Positions 21,315 to 27,122 of a DNA stretch of 64,000 bases are shown in pieces (the stretch's first letter is position 1; every line of letters starts with the position of its first letter). A program made the translations under genes and the position numbers. Where the stretch lies: positions 224,003 to 288,002 of the forward strand of contig NZ_KE383828.1 in the NCBI RefSeq assembly GCF_000422425.1. Reading direction: 5' to 3'. The notes below the pieces were generated by a model. That model searched no databases. It was not told the DNA's origin and saw nothing but the letters and a program-made list of their open reading frames with translations. Origin of the DNA: Oceanospirillum beijerinckii DSM 7166. Lineage in GTDB: Bacteria > Pseudomonadota > Gammaproteobacteria > Pseudomonadales > Halomonadaceae.

Positions 21315-24236
21315 ATGTCTGATAACAGCAATAAAAACACACCCAGCTGTCAGTTCTGTATAGATAATCCTGAACAAGACGTTAAAGAGATGTTTATTTC
21401 AGGTCAGGAAAAGCGTATTGCCCGGGGAGAACAACCGGCAAAACGTGCAGTATTTCGTAAAGTCCATGGCGTCGCTCATGGTGAATTTCAGATCAAAAGT
21501 GACCTGCCTGCAGAGTACAAAGTAGGTGTTTTTGGCCAGAAGGACAGTTATCCGGTCTGGGTGCGTTTTTCCAGTGATACCGCCCCCAATGCCACCGATT
21601 TAAAGGCAACCTCGGGCATAGGGATTAAGCTGTTTGGTGTTGAAGGTGAAAAACTGCTGGGCGACGGCACAACCCAGGATTTTATTCTGCAAAACAATGA
21701 TGTTTTCTTTGTCGATGATGCCCAGGCGATGTGCGAATTTACCCGCGCGGGTGTGGTAGAGGCAGACTACGACAGTTACTTGAAAACCCATGAAACAACC
21801 GCTCGCATCCTTGACGAGATGGAAAAGAAAGAAGCCAGTGTGCTGACCACGACATTCTGGAGTGCCCTGCCTTACAAACTGGGTCATAACCGTCCGGTCA
21901 AATACAAACTGGAGCCGGAACAAGAAGTCGACGGGGAACCTTTTGACAGCCCCAGCTATCTGGCGATTGATCTGACGCGACGCTTGCGCAGCAAGGAAGC
22001 CCGTTATCGCTTTATGGTGCAGTTCCAGCAGGATGGCGACCCTATTGACCAAGCTACCGTGCGCTGGGAAGGCCCTTGGGTACAATTGGCGACACTGGTA
22101 TTGCCACCTCAGGATATCACTACCCGTGGTCAGGCAGAGTACGGTGAAAATCTGGCCTTTAATCCCTGGCATGCGCTGGCGGAACATGAACCTCTGGGCA
22201 GTCTGTCTGCAGCCCGCAAGATCACTTATGCCGCCAGTGCAGAGACCCGCCATGCTGCCAATGGCATCAGCAATCAGGAACCCGGCCAGCCTCGTCCGGC
22301 ACAATTCCAAACACCTGCGCAAGACACCTGTATCGTTAAAGCGGCGATCTACCCTGGTATCGGCGTTGCCCGTGTGGGTAACAGTCCTGACGAGTTCTTT
22401 ATTGGCCCCGAAGTGGATAACCCGGCCCCAGAGGCGCCAGGTTTTTACCGTGATAGCCAGGGCGCATTAAAACGCCAGGCGGCCCGTTTCAGAATTTACG
22501 GTCTGAATGCAAAAGGCGAGATCATTAAAGAGCTGACTGCTGCGGATGCAGATATAGAGTGGAGTGTGCATCTGGCAAACCAAAAATCAGCCTGGTACGA
22601 ATTCCAGCTGGCTCTGGATATTCCTGAGGCTAAAGATGCGCCACCCAGCCTGCGCCGCAACGCTTTAATCTCAGATCGTCGGAGTTTGGTAATAGACCCT
22701 GGTTCTCGCAGTATTTCTGGGCTGAACAAAAGCGGCGACGACTACCGTTTTAATACCGATTATTTTATGGATATGCCAGAGCCTGTGGATCTGGGTGAAA
22801 TACGTACCGATGAACAGGGCCGACTGCTGGTACTGGGGGGCTTTGGCAAATCAGCTTCCTATGACAAATCCCCTGCCATCACGTTTGGTAATAATCAGGG
22901 TTGGCACGACGATACCTCAGATGGTCCGGTGACCGCAAAAGTCCACTATGAGGGTGTCGATCTGACCGTTGACCCGGCCTGGATTGTCGTTGCGCCACCC
23001 AACTATGGCCCTCAGTTGAAATCTGTACGCACCATGTGGGATCTCATGCGTGACATTGCTATCCAAAACAAGATGATAGCTTGCCCCGCCCGACCATCAT
23101 TCACCAAAGATATTCTGCCTATCTTCCAGCGTATGACCGATCTGCAATGGGTGAATGCCGGTTTTGCCTCCAGCTTTGGTTGGCAAGGACCGTTTAACTT
23201 TGAAGAACCACAGTGGTTAAAACGTATGTCCAGCCTGGATGCCAGCTATCGGGGCTTACGTCGCACCCTGTATCAACAGTTCAGGAAATATGACCGTGAT
23301 GGCATATCCCCGATTCCCTGGCCGTACCTGTATGGCGACGCCATGAACTTACCACCGGTATCACCGCGTCAGCACTCTGTTCTGACGGATACCCAGATGT
23401 CGATGCTGGAACAGTGGGCCAACGGTGACTTTATTGATGATTACGATCCAGATGCGGCTCCAATCACTGACCTGGAGAATCTCGAACCGGCAGAACAAGC
23501 CGCTATGCTGGATAAAGCCTCGCTGGACTTCTGTCTGGCTGACGCCTTTCACCCAGGCTGTGAAATGACCTGGCCGGTGCGCGATTCCCGTATGTATATG
23601 TCAGCATTTCGCTTTAAACATCCAAAACATGCGAATTGGAAAGAGCCTAACTATGGCCCTCAGTTAAACGGGGATGTGCTCAGTCTGCCCAGTGGTCCAT
23701 TATCAGCCGGTCAACTACCCGGTGGTATCACCCGTTGGATGGCCGTGCCTTGGCAAACAGATACCGCCAGCTGTCGCTCTGGTTACGACAAGGAATTTGA
23801 TCCTTATATTCCTTCATTCTGGCCAGCACGTGTGCCGAACCAGGTGATGACCAAAGAAGCCTACGACGTTGTGATTGATGAAAGTCAGCCACTGGAAAAA
23901 CGTAAGCAGGCGTTCAGTCAGCGGGCTGATTGGGATTATCCTCTCAATACAGACAAGAGCTATACCTATCAGATCAATCAAATGATTGCGCATTTCGATC
24001 AGATGGGTGTTGTTGAGGTACGCGAGGGACCAAGAGACAGTTCAGGCTTCCCATCCTATGTCCAGGTTTCCGATCGAAATGCCCTGATTACACCACCGAT
24101 AGGAGAACGCAGAGGGGATCAGGAAGATGAAGCTTGCCATCCTCTGTCTCATGGCCTGGACCTGCTTGACGAGCTGATGGAATCCATCTCGGATCTCAGC
24201 CAGATCGACAAAGTCCACCGCCTGGACAGAAAGTAG
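21315..24236 (+). CDS. Fusion of catalase-like heme domain with LodA-like CTQ amine/amino-acid oxidase
   Basis: This 973-aa protein has two recognisable halves. Residues about 30-325 look like a heme catalase-family domain: distal His51 in RKVHGVAHGEF, VRFSS, QNNDVFFVDD (Asn127/128), FNPW, and a proximal ligand pattern R301-K-I-T-Y305. From about 339 the sequence is LodA/GoxA-like (AAIYPGIGVARVGNSPDEFF). The residues that form cysteine tryptophylquinone are present: Cys749 in FHPGCEMTWP and Trp813 in MAVPWQTDTASC, 64 apart, as in LodA. LodA enzymes oxidise lysine, glycine or similar amines and release H2O2, so the fused catalase domain could remove or use that H2O2. GGAG lies 7 nt before the ATG. 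There is no classical signal peptide. The next gene is the LodB-like maturation flavoprotein. The fusion itself is the odd feature. Confidence 0.85.
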   Translation: MSDNSNKNTPSCQFCIDNPEQDVKEMFISGQEKRIARGEQPAKRAVFRKVHGVAHGEFQIKSDLPAEYKVGVFGQKDSYPVWVRFSSDTAPNATDLKATSGIGIKLFGVEGEKLLGDGTTQDFILQNNDVFFVDDAQAMCEFTRAGVVEADYDSYLKTHETTARILDEMEKKEASVLTTTFWSALPYKLGHNRPVKYKLEPEQEVDGEPFDSPSYLAIDLTRRLRSKEARYRFMVQFQQDGDPIDQATVRWEGPWVQLATLVLPPQDITTRGQAEYGENLAFNPWHALAEHEPLGSLSAARKITYAASAETRHAANGISNQEPGQPRPAQFQTPAQDTCIVKAAIYPGIGVARVGNSPDEFFIGPEVDNPAPEAPGFYRDSQGALKRQAARFRIYGLNAKGEIIKELTAADADIEWSVHLANQKSAWYEFQLALDIPEAKDAPPSLRRNALISDRRSLVIDPGSRSISGLNKSGDDYRFNTDYFMDMPEPVDLGEIRTDEQGRLLVLGGFGKSASYDKSPAITFGNNQGWHDDTSDGPVTAKVHYEGVDLTVDPAWIVVAPPNYGPQLKSVRTMWDLMRDIAIQNKMIACPARPSFTKDILPIFQRMTDLQWVNAGFASSFGWQGPFNFEEPQWLKRMSSLDASYRGLRRTLYQQFRKYDRDGISPIPWPYLYGDAMNLPPVSPRQHSVLTDTQMSMLEQWANGDFIDDYDPDAAPITDLENLEPAEQAAMLDKASLDFCLADAFHPGCEMTWPVRDSRMYMSAFRFKHPKHANWKEPNYGPQLNGDVLSLPSGPLSAGQLPGGITRWMAVPWQTDTASCRSGYDKEFDPYIPSFWPARVPNQVMTKEAYDVVIDESQPLEKRKQAFSQRADWDYPLNTDKSYTYQINQMIAHFDQMGVVEVREGPRDSSGFPSYVQVSDRNALITPPIGERRGDQEDEACHPLSHGLDLLDELMESISDLSQIDKVHRLDRK

Positions 24237-24251
24237 GCCTGGAAGACGATC

Positions 24252-25395
24252 ATGACAGCGCCTTTAAACGCAACACCCATAGAAGAAGGGCCTGTCCGGC
24301 CCTCGGCGCACTTTGATGTGCTGATTGCCGGTGCAGGTCCTGCGGGTTGCAGCGCTGCTATCACTTTAGCCCCCCGTTACCGGGTGGCTTTAGTGGATCG
24401 CAGTGATCAGCAGACCTTTCGTATCGGTGAATCACTCTGCCCTGCGGGGCGTCGCTTGCTGACTAAGATGGATCTATGGCAAGACTTCCTGCGCCAAGGG
24501 CATCAGGCCTGCTATGGCAACCGTTCCATCTGGGGCAGTGACGGTGTTCAGGAAACTGATTTCCTACGCGACCCGGATGGTAACGGCTGGCATCTGGATC
24601 GAGCCCGTTTTGATTTCTGGCTACGGAATCACGCCGTTGCCAAAGGTAGTCAACTATACAGCCCCCTATACCGTCAGTGATGTGAAATATCAGGATGACG
24701 TTTGGCATGTGTTGTTAAAGTCCGCGGATGACGAAATCACTGTTACTGCAAAGCTCCTGATTGACGCCGCCGGGCGTGCCTGCCCTATCGCCCGAAAACT
24801 GGGAGCCAAACGAACAGCAACCGATAAGTTGGTTTGTGGTTATCTGGTTGGCCGTGAAGTCCCCCAATCCACCGATGCCGGTTTTAGCTATATTGAAGCC
24901 AGCCCGGAAGGCTGGTGGTACAGCGCACCTATTCCTGATGATCGTCGAATTCTGGCCTTTTTTACTGATACCGGACTACCGGCTACCCAGTGGGCACTCA
25001 ATCCCGAGGGGTTGATACAACATGCTTATAAGCAGGCATCGTTAGCGGCATTACTGGATCGTTGCCAGTTCCAGGCAACTGAAGAGTCCGGTTATCACGC
25101 TGCGCATACCTCAACTCTGGATACCAAATACGGAAACCAGTGGCTGGCCACCGGTGACGCTGCGATGAGTCTTGACCCACTGAGCTCGCAAGGTATCTTC
25201 AACGGTCTTTATACCGGCTTATACGCAGCCCTGAACGCTGACAAGTGGTTTTCCGGTCAGATCACGGACTTTAGAGACTATAACCAACAATTGGACAACA
25301 TTGAAACAGCCTACCGACAGCACTACGACGAGTGGTATGGACTCCAGAGACGCTGGCAGGATCAGCCCTTCTGGAGTGCGAGACACAAACGCTAA
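24252..25395 (+). pseudogene. LodB-like FAD-dependent maturation protein, frameshifted
   Basis: The first frame (24252-24680) has the dinucleotide fold VLIAGAGPAGCSAA and FRIGESLCPAGRRLL; the +1 frame then carries the rest (VSDVKYQDDVW, IDAAGRACPIARKLGA, GDAAMSLDPLSSQGIFNGL) to 25395. Removing one C from the C5 run at 24662-24666 joins the two parts into one protein of about 380 aa with the size and motifs of LodB, a tryptophan-halogenase-like flavoprotein needed to form the CTQ cofactor of LodA. It follows the LodA-like gene by 15 bp. Either this allele is broken, leaving the oxidase unmatured, or the homopolymer was misread. Confidence 0.82.
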
Positions 25396-25632: not shown

Positions 25633-25721
25633 TATAGATTTATACTTAACCGTGTGATAAATTTATTTTCAGTCGTTAACTGATTGTTAATAAGCACTTT
25701 TTTATATTGAGAGGCTTAACT

Positions 25722-27122
25722 GTGAAATTAAAACTGATTGTGACTTCCGTTGCTCTGGCATCCGCAATGAACGCTTTTGCGGCTCAAGATTACGCAAACT
25801 TCCCCGTAACCGTTAAAGATTATGATGGCAGTGCTAAAGACTCGGTGGCCTATACCGGTCAGGCGGCCCGTCAGGTTCTGCACACCTCTCTGAAAACTCT
25901 GTCCAAGCAGGGTAACGGCGAGCCAAACGCTCAGCTGAAAGCTAAAATGCTAACCTACTTCGACGGTAAGCACTCTGGCCGTGACATTCTGTCCCCGGTA
26001 TCTAAAAGCGGCTTCGTGGTCACACCAGATCAGGTGGATAAACTGTCTGGTGATAAGAATCTGGCAGGTAAAACCTATAAAGGTACGGTTGCCGGATGGC
26101 CTGGTAACATGAAGGGACCAGAAATGGTTCGCTTTATGATCGACAAAGCCTCCTCCGCAAACAAAGGCTTTGATCCACTGACCGGTTACGATTACACCCA
26201 GTTAATCTCCAAGTTCCTAATGGGTGCAGTATTCTACAATCAGGCCGTAGACAACTATTTGGATGAGCAGCTAGATGCTGACAAAAAGCCAAACAACAAG
26301 CCTTACAAAGACGGTGCTAAATACACCGGTAAAGAGCATGTTTGGGATGAAGCATTCGGTTACTTCGGTGCTCCGGCTAACACGCTGAGCCTGACTGCGG
26401 AAGATGTATATAACATCGCTAAACAGAAGCCTGAAGCCTTCAACAAAGCCGATGCTAACAACGATGGTAAAGTCTCTCTGTACAACGAGATGACCTACGC
26501 CCACGCTTACTACGCAGCAGGCTTCGATAAAGGCGGTAAGACCAACTACCTGCACACCATCACTCAAGCATTTGTTGACGGTCGTCAGCTGATCACTGAT
26601 GCCGATGGTGAAGCGCTGAGTAACATGGAGCGCCTGCAGCTGAAAGGTTACGCAGAGATCATCGAAAAGAATTGGGAAAAAGTAATCGCTGAAGCCGTAT
26701 TTAAGTATGCGGGCTCTACCTACAAGGATCTGGGCAAGCTGCACCAACTGATCGAAGCCAATAACGACAACATCGACAAAGAATACCGTACATACGCTAA
26801 GCACTGGGGTGAGCTGAAAGGCTTCGCACTGGCGCTGCAAACCGGTAAAAACAATTTGGGTGAAACGGCAGATAAGCTGAATAAGCTGATCGGTTTCGGC
26901 CCTATTCTGCTGGGCGGTACTCAGGTGGTCGGTATTGATGGCAACAATGATTTTATTCAGTCTTACTCCATGAACTTCGAACAATACCAACTGAATATGC
27001 TGAAAGTTCAGCAGCTGATGATTGATGAGTTTGGCGTTAAAGCTCGTAACAAAGATGTGCTGTCAGATATGAGCGGCCTGGCTGACAAGCTGAGTTCTGG
27101 CGTTGCGGTTGAAAACGACTAA
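25722..27122 (+). CDS. DUF4856 (imelysin-related) exported protein, probably iron-regulated
   Basis: This protein has a signal peptide (KLIVTSVALASAMNAFA, then AQ) and resembles DUF4856 proteins, which are often found with imelysin-like iron-uptake components. A calcium-loop-like stretch ADANNDGKVSLYNE is visible near the middle. The GTG at 25722 is preferred, with GAGAGG 7 nt upstream; an upstream TTG (25707) would put five residues before the signal peptide. A Fur-box candidate lies in the promoter and a terminator follows. Codon use is unusually biased (GGT, AAA, CTG, GAC), suggesting high expression. The molecular function of the family is not established. Confidence 0.8.
   Translation: MKLKLIVTSVALASAMNAFAAQDYANFPVTVKDYDGSAKDSVAYTGQAARQVLHTSLKTLSKQGNGEPNAQLKAKMLTYFDGKHSGRDILSPVSKSGFVVTPDQVDKLSGDKNLAGKTYKGTVAGWPGNMKGPEMVRFMIDKASSANKGFDPLTGYDYTQLISKFLMGAVFYNQAVDNYLDEQLDADKKPNNKPYKDGAKYTGKEHVWDEAFGYFGAPANTLSLTAEDVYNIAKQKPEAFNKADANNDGKVSLYNEMTYAHAYYAAGFDKGGKTNYLHTITQAFVDGRQLITDADGEALSNMERLQLKGYAEIIEKNWEKVIAEAVFKYAGSTYKDLGKLHQLIEANNDNIDKEYRTYAKHWGELKGFALALQTGKNNLGETADKLNKLIGFGPILLGGTQVVGIDGNNDFIQSYSMNFEQYQLNMLKVQQLMIDEFGVKARNKDVLSDMSGLADKLSSGVAVEND

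What the first reader, a model, noticed from the sequence alone, without database searches (positions are those of the whole stretch)
21315..24236. Catalase-like domain fused to a LodA-type CTQ oxidase
LodA-type quinoprotein oxidases release H2O2. Here a complete-looking heme catalase-family domain (distal His51, Asn127/128, R301-x3-Tyr305) is fused in frame ahead of a LodA core that keeps both CTQ precursors (Cys749, Trp813). A single polypeptide could make and destroy, or make and use, peroxide. I do not recall this as a described enzyme architecture.
Basis: partly seen in the sequence, partly recalled or inferred. Interest (0 to 1): 0.78.

Follow-up and report, generated by a model that had tools for sequence, protein, structure and literature searches.

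The report
Known catalase-like/LodA fusion oxidase
The gene really does join a catalase-like heme domain to a peroxide-making quinone enzyme, but this fusion, almost certainly this very gene, was listed in print in 2015 and occurs in many bacteria; what the heme half does is still untested.

Summary
In detail: 21315-24236 is one intact 973-aa frame. Residues 1-335 adopt a mini-catalase fold (model pLDDT 91.5; best solved match 3e4y, TM 0.70) and keep the catalase heme-residue set. Residues 340-920 are a LodA/GoxA core.

The architecture is not new. PMC4417212 (2015) lists 21 catalase-LodA fusions. One is a 973-aa protein of Oceanospirillum beijerinckii DSM 7166, followed by a split lodB, in a genome with a second lodA-like gene. 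The window and its genome show all three features.

All 80 kept genome loci (best of 404 relatives) carry the full fusion, in seven phyla. The halves co-vary (r = 0.96), so the fusion probably arose once.

Most likely the CTQ half oxidises an unknown amine or amino acid, making H2O2 that the heme half consumes nearby. That is inference; I found no characterised member. Here the maturase gene lodB is broken, so this copy may never acquire its quinone.

The parts
21315..24236 (+). catalase-like/LodA fusion gene, 973 aa
   Evidence: full-length relatives in 81 of 81 loci kept by two collection scans
21315..22319 (+). N-terminal mini-catalase-fold heme domain (aa 1-335)
   Evidence: AlphaFold2 pLDDT 91.5; PDB best match 3e4y TM 0.70; profile hit to 3e4w E 7.7e-11
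21456..21467 (+). R48-x-x-H51: heme-coordinating Arg, residue 50 (Val here), distal His51
   Evidence: column counts over 82 rows; catalase/cAOS residue roles from PMC5617202 passages
21564..21566 (+). Arg84, heme-coordinating Arg equivalent
   Evidence: 82 of 82; role assigned by spacing from PMC5617202 passages
21693..21695 (+). Asn127, distal heme Asn
   Evidence: 80 of 82
22215..22250 (+). proximal helix: Arg301, heme ligand Tyr305, Arg312
   Evidence: each 82 of 82; helix 296-316 in the model
22332..24077 (+). LodA/GoxA-type CTQ oxidase core (aa 340-921)
   Evidence: Pfam LodA_N, LodA_C; PDB 3weu/2ymw and 6byw by sequence and by fold
23772..23774 (+). Cys820, CTQ cysteine (LodA C516 equivalent)
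   Evidence: alignments; 82 of 82
23820..23822 (+). Trp836, CTQ tryptophan (GoxA W697, LodA W581 equivalent)
   Evidence: alignment; listed invariant over 82 rows
24252..24680 (+). 5' piece of lodB (FAD maturase), 142 aa
   Evidence: NCBIfam LodB maturase positions 1-118, E 3e-22, below the equivalog cut-off
24514..25395 (+). 3' piece of lodB in another frame; homology from about 24686 (median of homologue alignments)
   Evidence: NCBIfam GoxB/LodB maturase to the end of the models, E 2e-40/4e-40, below the equivalog cut-offs; tblastn with intact homologues

Best explanation
This is a member of the already catalogued catalase-fused LodA-like proteins (group III of PMC4417212). Shown: a heme-catalase-fold domain with a complete heme residue set sits in frame before a CTQ oxidase core, with lodB downstream. 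Inferred: LodB helps to make CTQ from Trp836 and Cys820, and CTQ oxidises a primary amine or amino acid (substrate unknown, probably neither lysine nor glycine) with release of NH3 and H2O2. The tethered heme domain then removes that H2O2, catalase-like, next to where it is made, protecting the quinone enzyme and the cell. In this strain lodB is broken, so the CTQ half may stay immature unless the pieces, or the LodB of the second locus, replace it.
For: Domains and fold. Heme set R48 (69 of 82), H51 (81 of 82), R84 (82 of 82), N127 (80 of 82), R301, Y305, R312 (each 82 of 82); these correspond to the catalase/cAOS residues named in PMC5617202 passages (R301 by recall). In the window the residue before the distal His is Val, as in catalase (recalled); a T66V change is reported to induce catalase activity in coral cAOS (title of a cited paper and a passage seen). 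CTQ residues. Glycine oxidase is unlikely because GoxA's Y766/H767 fall in an insertion that the profile lacks and both NCBIfam equivalog cut-offs are missed. A lodB in one open frame lies within 1.5 kb downstream on the same strand in 75 of 81 loci. The two halves co-inherit: catalase parts one clade of 42 rows against 10 others, distance correlation 0.96 with 0 of 999 permutations reaching it, as expected for a working pair.
Against: Activity was not testable. Catalase-fold relatives include enzymes whose main reaction is another (cAOS, chanoclavine synthase). Val at position 50 occurs in only 3 of 82; most have Gln (44) or Leu (25). That position is also a weak guide: in the passages cAOS is said not to scavenge H2O2, yet wild-type Capnella imbricata cAOS, with an active site like that of the Thr66 enzyme, evolved O2 from H2O2 at kcat 303 per second. 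Close LodA cores without the heme domain exist (53-56% identical: L114, L115, L019, L122), so it is dispensable. No coordinates or error matrix were available to place heme and CTQ relative to each other, and the CTQ loops are poorly modelled (742-751 and 812-835 under pLDDT 50).
Confidence: 0.55

Rival explanations
1. Make-and-use: the heme domain uses H2O2 made by the CTQ domain as a peroxidase or peroxygenase on the CTQ product or another substrate, analogous to coral AOS-LOX, where the lipoxygenase half feeds a hydroperoxide to a catalase-fold half.
For: Same domain order as coral AOS-LOX/HPL-LOX (heme domain N-terminal, oxidase C-terminal). Catalase-fold enzymes with other main reactions are among the 50 listed fold matches (9jdb chanoclavine synthase rank 3, 1u5u cAOS rank 47). 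Residue 50 is Gln, Leu, Pro or Ala in 79 of 82.
Against: No widely conserved neighbour besides lodB that would suggest a pathway. The window's own protein has the catalase-type Val50.
Confidence: 0.25
2. The heme domain has mainly a structural, targeting or oligomerisation role, with heme kept for stability or sensing.
For: It has been lost, or never gained, in several close LodA lineages (5 label changes on the tree); weak Pfam score.
Against: Heme ligand Tyr305 and Arg84, Arg301, Arg312 invariant in 82 of 82 while mean column identity is 57%.
Confidence: 0.15
3. In this strain the locus is decaying: with lodB broken the LodA half is not matured and only the heme half could be active.
For: lodB homology ends in one frame at about 24659 (median; range 24623-24695) and resumes in another at about 24686 (median; range 24631-24748) in alignments with 51 of 55 selected intact homologues. 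The 2015 paper reports the same split.
Against: The 973-aa frame itself is intact with all key residues; split LodB pieces could reassemble, and a second lodB exists in the genome, though each LodB-like protein might be specific for its partner (PMC4417212 section 6). A shared assembly error cannot be excluded, because both reports may rest on the same assembly.
Confidence: 0.4

Closest known systems
Catalase-fused group III LodA-like proteins (Campillo-Brocal et al. 2015, PMC4417212, Table 3), in particular Oceanospirillum beijerinckii DSM 7166 H579DRAFT_00201
   Same: 973 aa, N-terminal pfam00199/cd08152-type domain, split lodB downstream, second lodA-like gene in the genome (window)
   Different: That paper found that the fusions do not cluster in any subgroup; my trees suggest one catalase-domain clade
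Marinomonas mediterranea LodA (3weu) and Pseudoalteromonas luteoviolacea GoxA (6byw)
   Same: LodA core, CTQ Cys/Trp, Asp816 and His746 equivalents of GoxA D678 and H583
   Different: No catalase match lies in them; GoxA's Y766/H767 loop is missing here; LodA has Cys where this has His746
Mycobacterium avium subsp. paratuberculosis 33-kDa catalase-related protein (3e4w/3e4y) and the catalase-family gene of plasmid pNGR234a (taken to be y4iL; the name is not in the record)
   Same: mini-catalase fold (3e4y) or sequence likeness over aa 32-323 (pNGR234a gene)
   Different: stand-alone genes; 19-20% (fold alignment) and 33% identical
Coral AOS-LOX / HPL-LOX fusions (PMC5617202, abstract and passages)
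   Same: catalase-fold heme domain N-terminal to an oxidase whose product it consumes
   Different: partner is a lipoxygenase; residue before the distal His is Thr in cAOS, Val here

Membership tests
LodA-like CTQ oxidases | LodA_N and LodA_C domains over curated cut-offs | tested here: met
   284 and 132 bits against 26.3 and 25
LodA-like CTQ oxidases | Cys and Trp that form CTQ | tested here: met
   Cys820/Trp836 aligned with LodA C516 and with GoxA C682/W697; Cys820 82 of 82, Trp836 in the invariant list
LodA-like CTQ oxidases | lodB maturase gene next door | tested here: inconclusive
   present downstream but split over two frames
LodA-like CTQ oxidases | oxidase activity with release of H2O2 | not testable with these tools
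   needs protein
GoxA glycine oxidase / LodA lysine 6-oxidase (NCBIfam equivalogs) | score over the equivalog cut-off | tested here: not met
   425.9 of 750 (GoxA) and 204.9 of 600 (LodA)
Heme catalase (PF00199) | Pfam gathering score | tested here: not met
   18.9 bits whole protein, 21.5 bits domain alone, cut-off 25
Heme catalase | catalase fold with Tyr ligand, distal His/Asn and heme arginines | tested here: met
   heme itself not shown
Heme catalase | full-size subunit | tested here: not met
   335 aa; the catalases listed have 474-502 or, for the large-subunit kind, 668-678 residues
Heme catalase | H2O2 dismutation | not testable with these tools
   needs protein
Catalase-LodA fusions of group III (PMC4417212) | N-terminal pfam00199/cd08152-type domain in frame with a LodA core | tested here: met
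   pfam00199 only below its cut-off, and cd08152 itself was not in the libraries
Catalase-LodA fusions of group III (PMC4417212) | placement in group III of that paper's tree | not tested
   their alignment was not held; my tree puts the query among fusions

The most novel reading that the evidence does not exclude
A self-contained peroxygenase cascade: the CTQ half turns an amine into an imine or aldehyde plus H2O2, and the tethered heme half, whose pocket next to the distal His differs from catalase in most members, spends that H2O2 on oxygenating the product or a partner, as an amine-driven counterpart of the coral AOS-LOX fusions.
Probability: 0.15. Interest if true: 0.6.

Novelty: already known. 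Interest (0 to 1): 0.25.

Why it matters
As an architecture it is catalogued, so it adds no new kind of system. It would matter biochemically: a natural fusion of an H2O2-producing quinoenzyme and a heme domain would be a direct test of peroxide channelling, and PMC4417212 said in 2015 that no group III protein had been characterised. Four searches of the open library aimed at LodA/GoxA/CTQ (listings of 10 of 10, 20 of 102, 16 of 16 and 12 of 321 papers) showed me no title on a characterised fusion. The corrected CTQ residues (Cys820/Trp836) and the broken lodB matter to anyone choosing a construct: take a relative with an intact lodB.

Tried and rejected
Considered and rejected: (1) chance or artefactual frame: 81 of 81 kept loci carry the same full-length fusion, and both halves have the same base composition (GC3 0.51 and 0.52). 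(2) The DUF4856 gene, fatty-acid hydroxylase gene and AraC-type gene beside it as parts of the system: hardly any recurs near the fusions (DUF4856 0 of 81, hydroxylase 0 of 81, AraC-like 1 of 81 on the opposite strand). lodB is the only widely shared neighbour; the next gene clusters hold 10, 10 and 9 of 81 loci, mostly Tenacibaculum, and were not identified. (3) Glycine or lysine oxidase: equivalog cut-offs missed. (4) A separate catalase-like gene next to eight unfused LodA loci: none at E 1e-3 in the stretches held (L114-L119, L122, L124); some of these stretches are short, and L117 is the distant second LodA of the own genome.

Led nowhere: consensus promoter and terminator scans, near chance; Rfam, no match at gathering scores; whole-model Foldseek, whose 50 listed rows (of 643 matches) were all LodA/GoxA, so the N-terminal domain was folded alone; NCBIfam on 64 N-terminal domains, only a weak catalase HPII match to the window's (E 0.0023) and one weak match to a hypothetical-protein model. 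Paper searches on y4iL/mini-catalases, catalase-related fusions and chanoclavine synthase gave background only. In one search the 3' lodB piece was searched without its first 50 residues, which precede the homology.

Limits: the 80 genome loci are the best of 404 relatives, ranked by likeness to the query, so conservation counts are biased to near relatives. The trees are quick ones; the catalase tree has only 10 non-fused rows (the fragment in L022 was left out), and its output warns that long branches meet there. In one search, 42 fusions, the query and 22 unfused rows were used; the other fusions and duplicate or near-duplicate loci were left out. A3 holds 64 of the 82 A2 rows. The second LodA's group (IB in the paper) was not tested.

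Full report
Observation. Window 21315-24236 (+) is a single ATG-to-stop frame of 973 codons. Pfam finds LodA_N (346-559, E 1e-84) and LodA_C (683-836, E 2e-38), and a sub-threshold Catalase match (42-149, 18.9 bits against a cut-off of 25). The catalase relationship is real. A profile of 82 fusion proteins matches the solved mini-catalase 3e4w at E 7.7e-11. An AlphaFold2 model of residues 1-334 from 64 fusions has mean pLDDT 91.5 and pTM 0.89. Its best PDB matches are 3e4y (TM 0.70), chanoclavine synthase, true catalases and, at rank 47, coral allene oxide synthase. The model of the whole protein (pLDDT 79.7, pTM 0.69) matches LodA and GoxA; its CTQ loops are unreliable, and no coordinates were available to me, so I cannot say whether the two active sites face each other.

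Residues. Over the query and 81 relatives: Arg48 69 of 82, His51 81 of 82, Arg84 82 of 82, Asn127 80 of 82, Arg301, Tyr305 and Arg312 each 82 of 82. By spacing these are the heme-coordinating arginines, distal His and Asn, and proximal Tyr that PMC5617202 names for cAOS and catalase (passages; that Arg301 matches the Arg four before the Tyr in catalase is recalled). The residue before the distal His, Thr in cAOS and (recalled) Val in catalase, is Val in the window and two others, but Gln in 44, Leu in 25, Pro in 7 and Ala in 3 of 82. It is a weak guide to activity: the same passages report catalase activity (kcat 303 per second) for wild-type Capnella imbricata cAOS. The alignments put solved LodA C516 on Cys820 and solved GoxA C682/W697 on Cys820/Trp836 (residue numbers counted by me from the printed alignment). 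That LodA C516 and W581 form CTQ is stated in PMC4417212 (passages). My direct W581-W836 match in LodA lies in a very weak second stretch, so it rests mainly on the GoxA alignment. Cys749 falls on Ile in LodA and Val in GoxA. GoxA H583 and D678 correspond to His746 and Asp816, while GoxA Y766/H767 lie in an insertion absent here (that these residues were mutated in GoxA is from the entry titles, their roles recalled).

Already in print. PMC4417212 (sections 6, 7 and 11 read in full, other passages by find) reports 21 LodA-like proteins with an N-terminal pfam00199/cd08152 domain. Only one of the 21 rows is 973 aa long: Oceanospirillum beijerinckii DSM 7166 H579DRAFT_00201. The text adds that this gene is followed by two genes matching the N- and C-terminal parts of LodB, and lists the genome with lodA-like genes of groups IB and III. 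The window has a 973-aa fusion followed by lodB in two frames, and its genome has exactly one more LodA_C match, an unfused LodA with its own LodB. The paper says no group III protein had been characterised. Four searches of the open library aimed at LodA/GoxA/CTQ listed no title on a characterised fusion; two of the listings were cut (20 of 102 and 12 of 321 papers), I read passages of few of the papers, and most subscription journals are not held there.

Distribution and history. One scan of genome contigs gave 404 relatives. All 80 kept loci, plus the single IMG/VR locus, carry the full fusion: Pseudomonadota 33, Bacteroidota 33, Actinomycetota 7, Myxococcota 3, Acidobacteriota 2, Cyanobacteriota 1, Bacillota 1 of the 80. 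These are the best-scoring ones, so the count does not say how common fusions are. In even draws LodA itself is uncommon (10 of 369 genomes of the class; 12 of 398 of the phylum; the window's own genome counted in both), and of the 13 matches two are fusions (the window's and L123). Among plasmids the tool counts 6 of 152 matching records with at least 80% of the query in one place. The catalase parts of 42 fusions form one clade against 10 stand-alone or otherwise fused relatives, and over 82 fusions the distances of the two halves correlate at r = 0.96 (0 of 999 permutations as high). On the LodA tree the fusion label needs 5 changes. The simplest reading is one old fusion, spread as a unit and shortened several times by loss of the heme domain; the trees cannot by themselves tell gain from loss.

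Surroundings. A lodB in one open frame lies within 1.5 kb downstream on the same strand in 75 of 81 loci. Of the other 6, L104 has a partial match just downstream, four (L049, L066, L079, L106) end at or within 122 bases of the gene, and L107 has none. No other neighbour is widely shared; the next clusters hold 10, 10 and 9 loci, mostly Tenacibaculum, not identified. In the window, lodB homology leaves one frame around 24659 (median; range 24623-24695) and resumes in another around 24686 (median; range 24631-24748), judged against 51 of 55 selected intact homologues. Whether this is decay, a working split gene or an assembly error is open; the 2015 paper saw the same and took it for a division of a previous gene.

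Mechanism. Best supported: amine or amino-acid oxidation at CTQ with H2O2 release (known for LodA and GoxA; PMC4417212 and PMC3948610, passages), then local use of H2O2 by the heme domain, most likely catalase-like removal. Shown here: domains, fold, conserved ligands, co-inheritance. Inferred: heme binding, CTQ formation, substrate class, peroxide transfer. The rivals are make-and-use chemistry and a non-catalytic role.

Verdict. A true and correctly spotted fusion, but catalogued a decade ago, probably this very gene. Corrections: the CTQ residues, the mini-catalase (not full catalase) nature, and the broken maturase gene.

Noticed in passing
window 24252-25395: The lodB maturase gene is split between two frames around 24623-24748, also reported in 2015; it casts doubt on CTQ formation in this strain.
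   Followed up: yes
L007:25-2382, L008:130-2382, L009: In three genomes of the window's own family a catalase-like domain is the C-terminal part of a long protein; in L007 and L008 (the two scanned) the front part has a weak Dyp_perox_C match (E about 0.009, under cut-off), suggesting a DyP-peroxidase/catalase-like fusion. Each of these genomes has a second catalase-like match about 6.5 kb away.
   Followed up: partly
L117:5603-8831 (own genome, contig 21): A second LodA/LodB pair without catalase domain, near moaA and moaC/moaD-type genes and a nitrite/sulfite-reductase-like gene.
   Followed up: partly
L114:5460-6833 (Rhizobium jaguaris plasmid): Directly upstream of an unfused LodA lies a gene with a T6SS Tle1-like phospholipase domain (E 8e-67) and, further up, a peptidoglycan-binding-domain gene.
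   Followed up: no
L115:8869-15739 (Bradyrhizobium barranii plasmid): An unfused LodA/LodB pair with a DyP-type peroxidase gene about 4 kb downstream.
   Followed up: no
L022; hits H6 and H8: Fusions that may be broken: L022 has a catalase part and a LodA part in separate frames; the Sinorhizobium meliloti and S. medicae matches were joined from 4 and 3 pieces. Not examined further.
   Followed up: no
window 25707-27122: DUF4856 protein downstream with a weak EF-hand match; not found near other fusions.
   Followed up: partly
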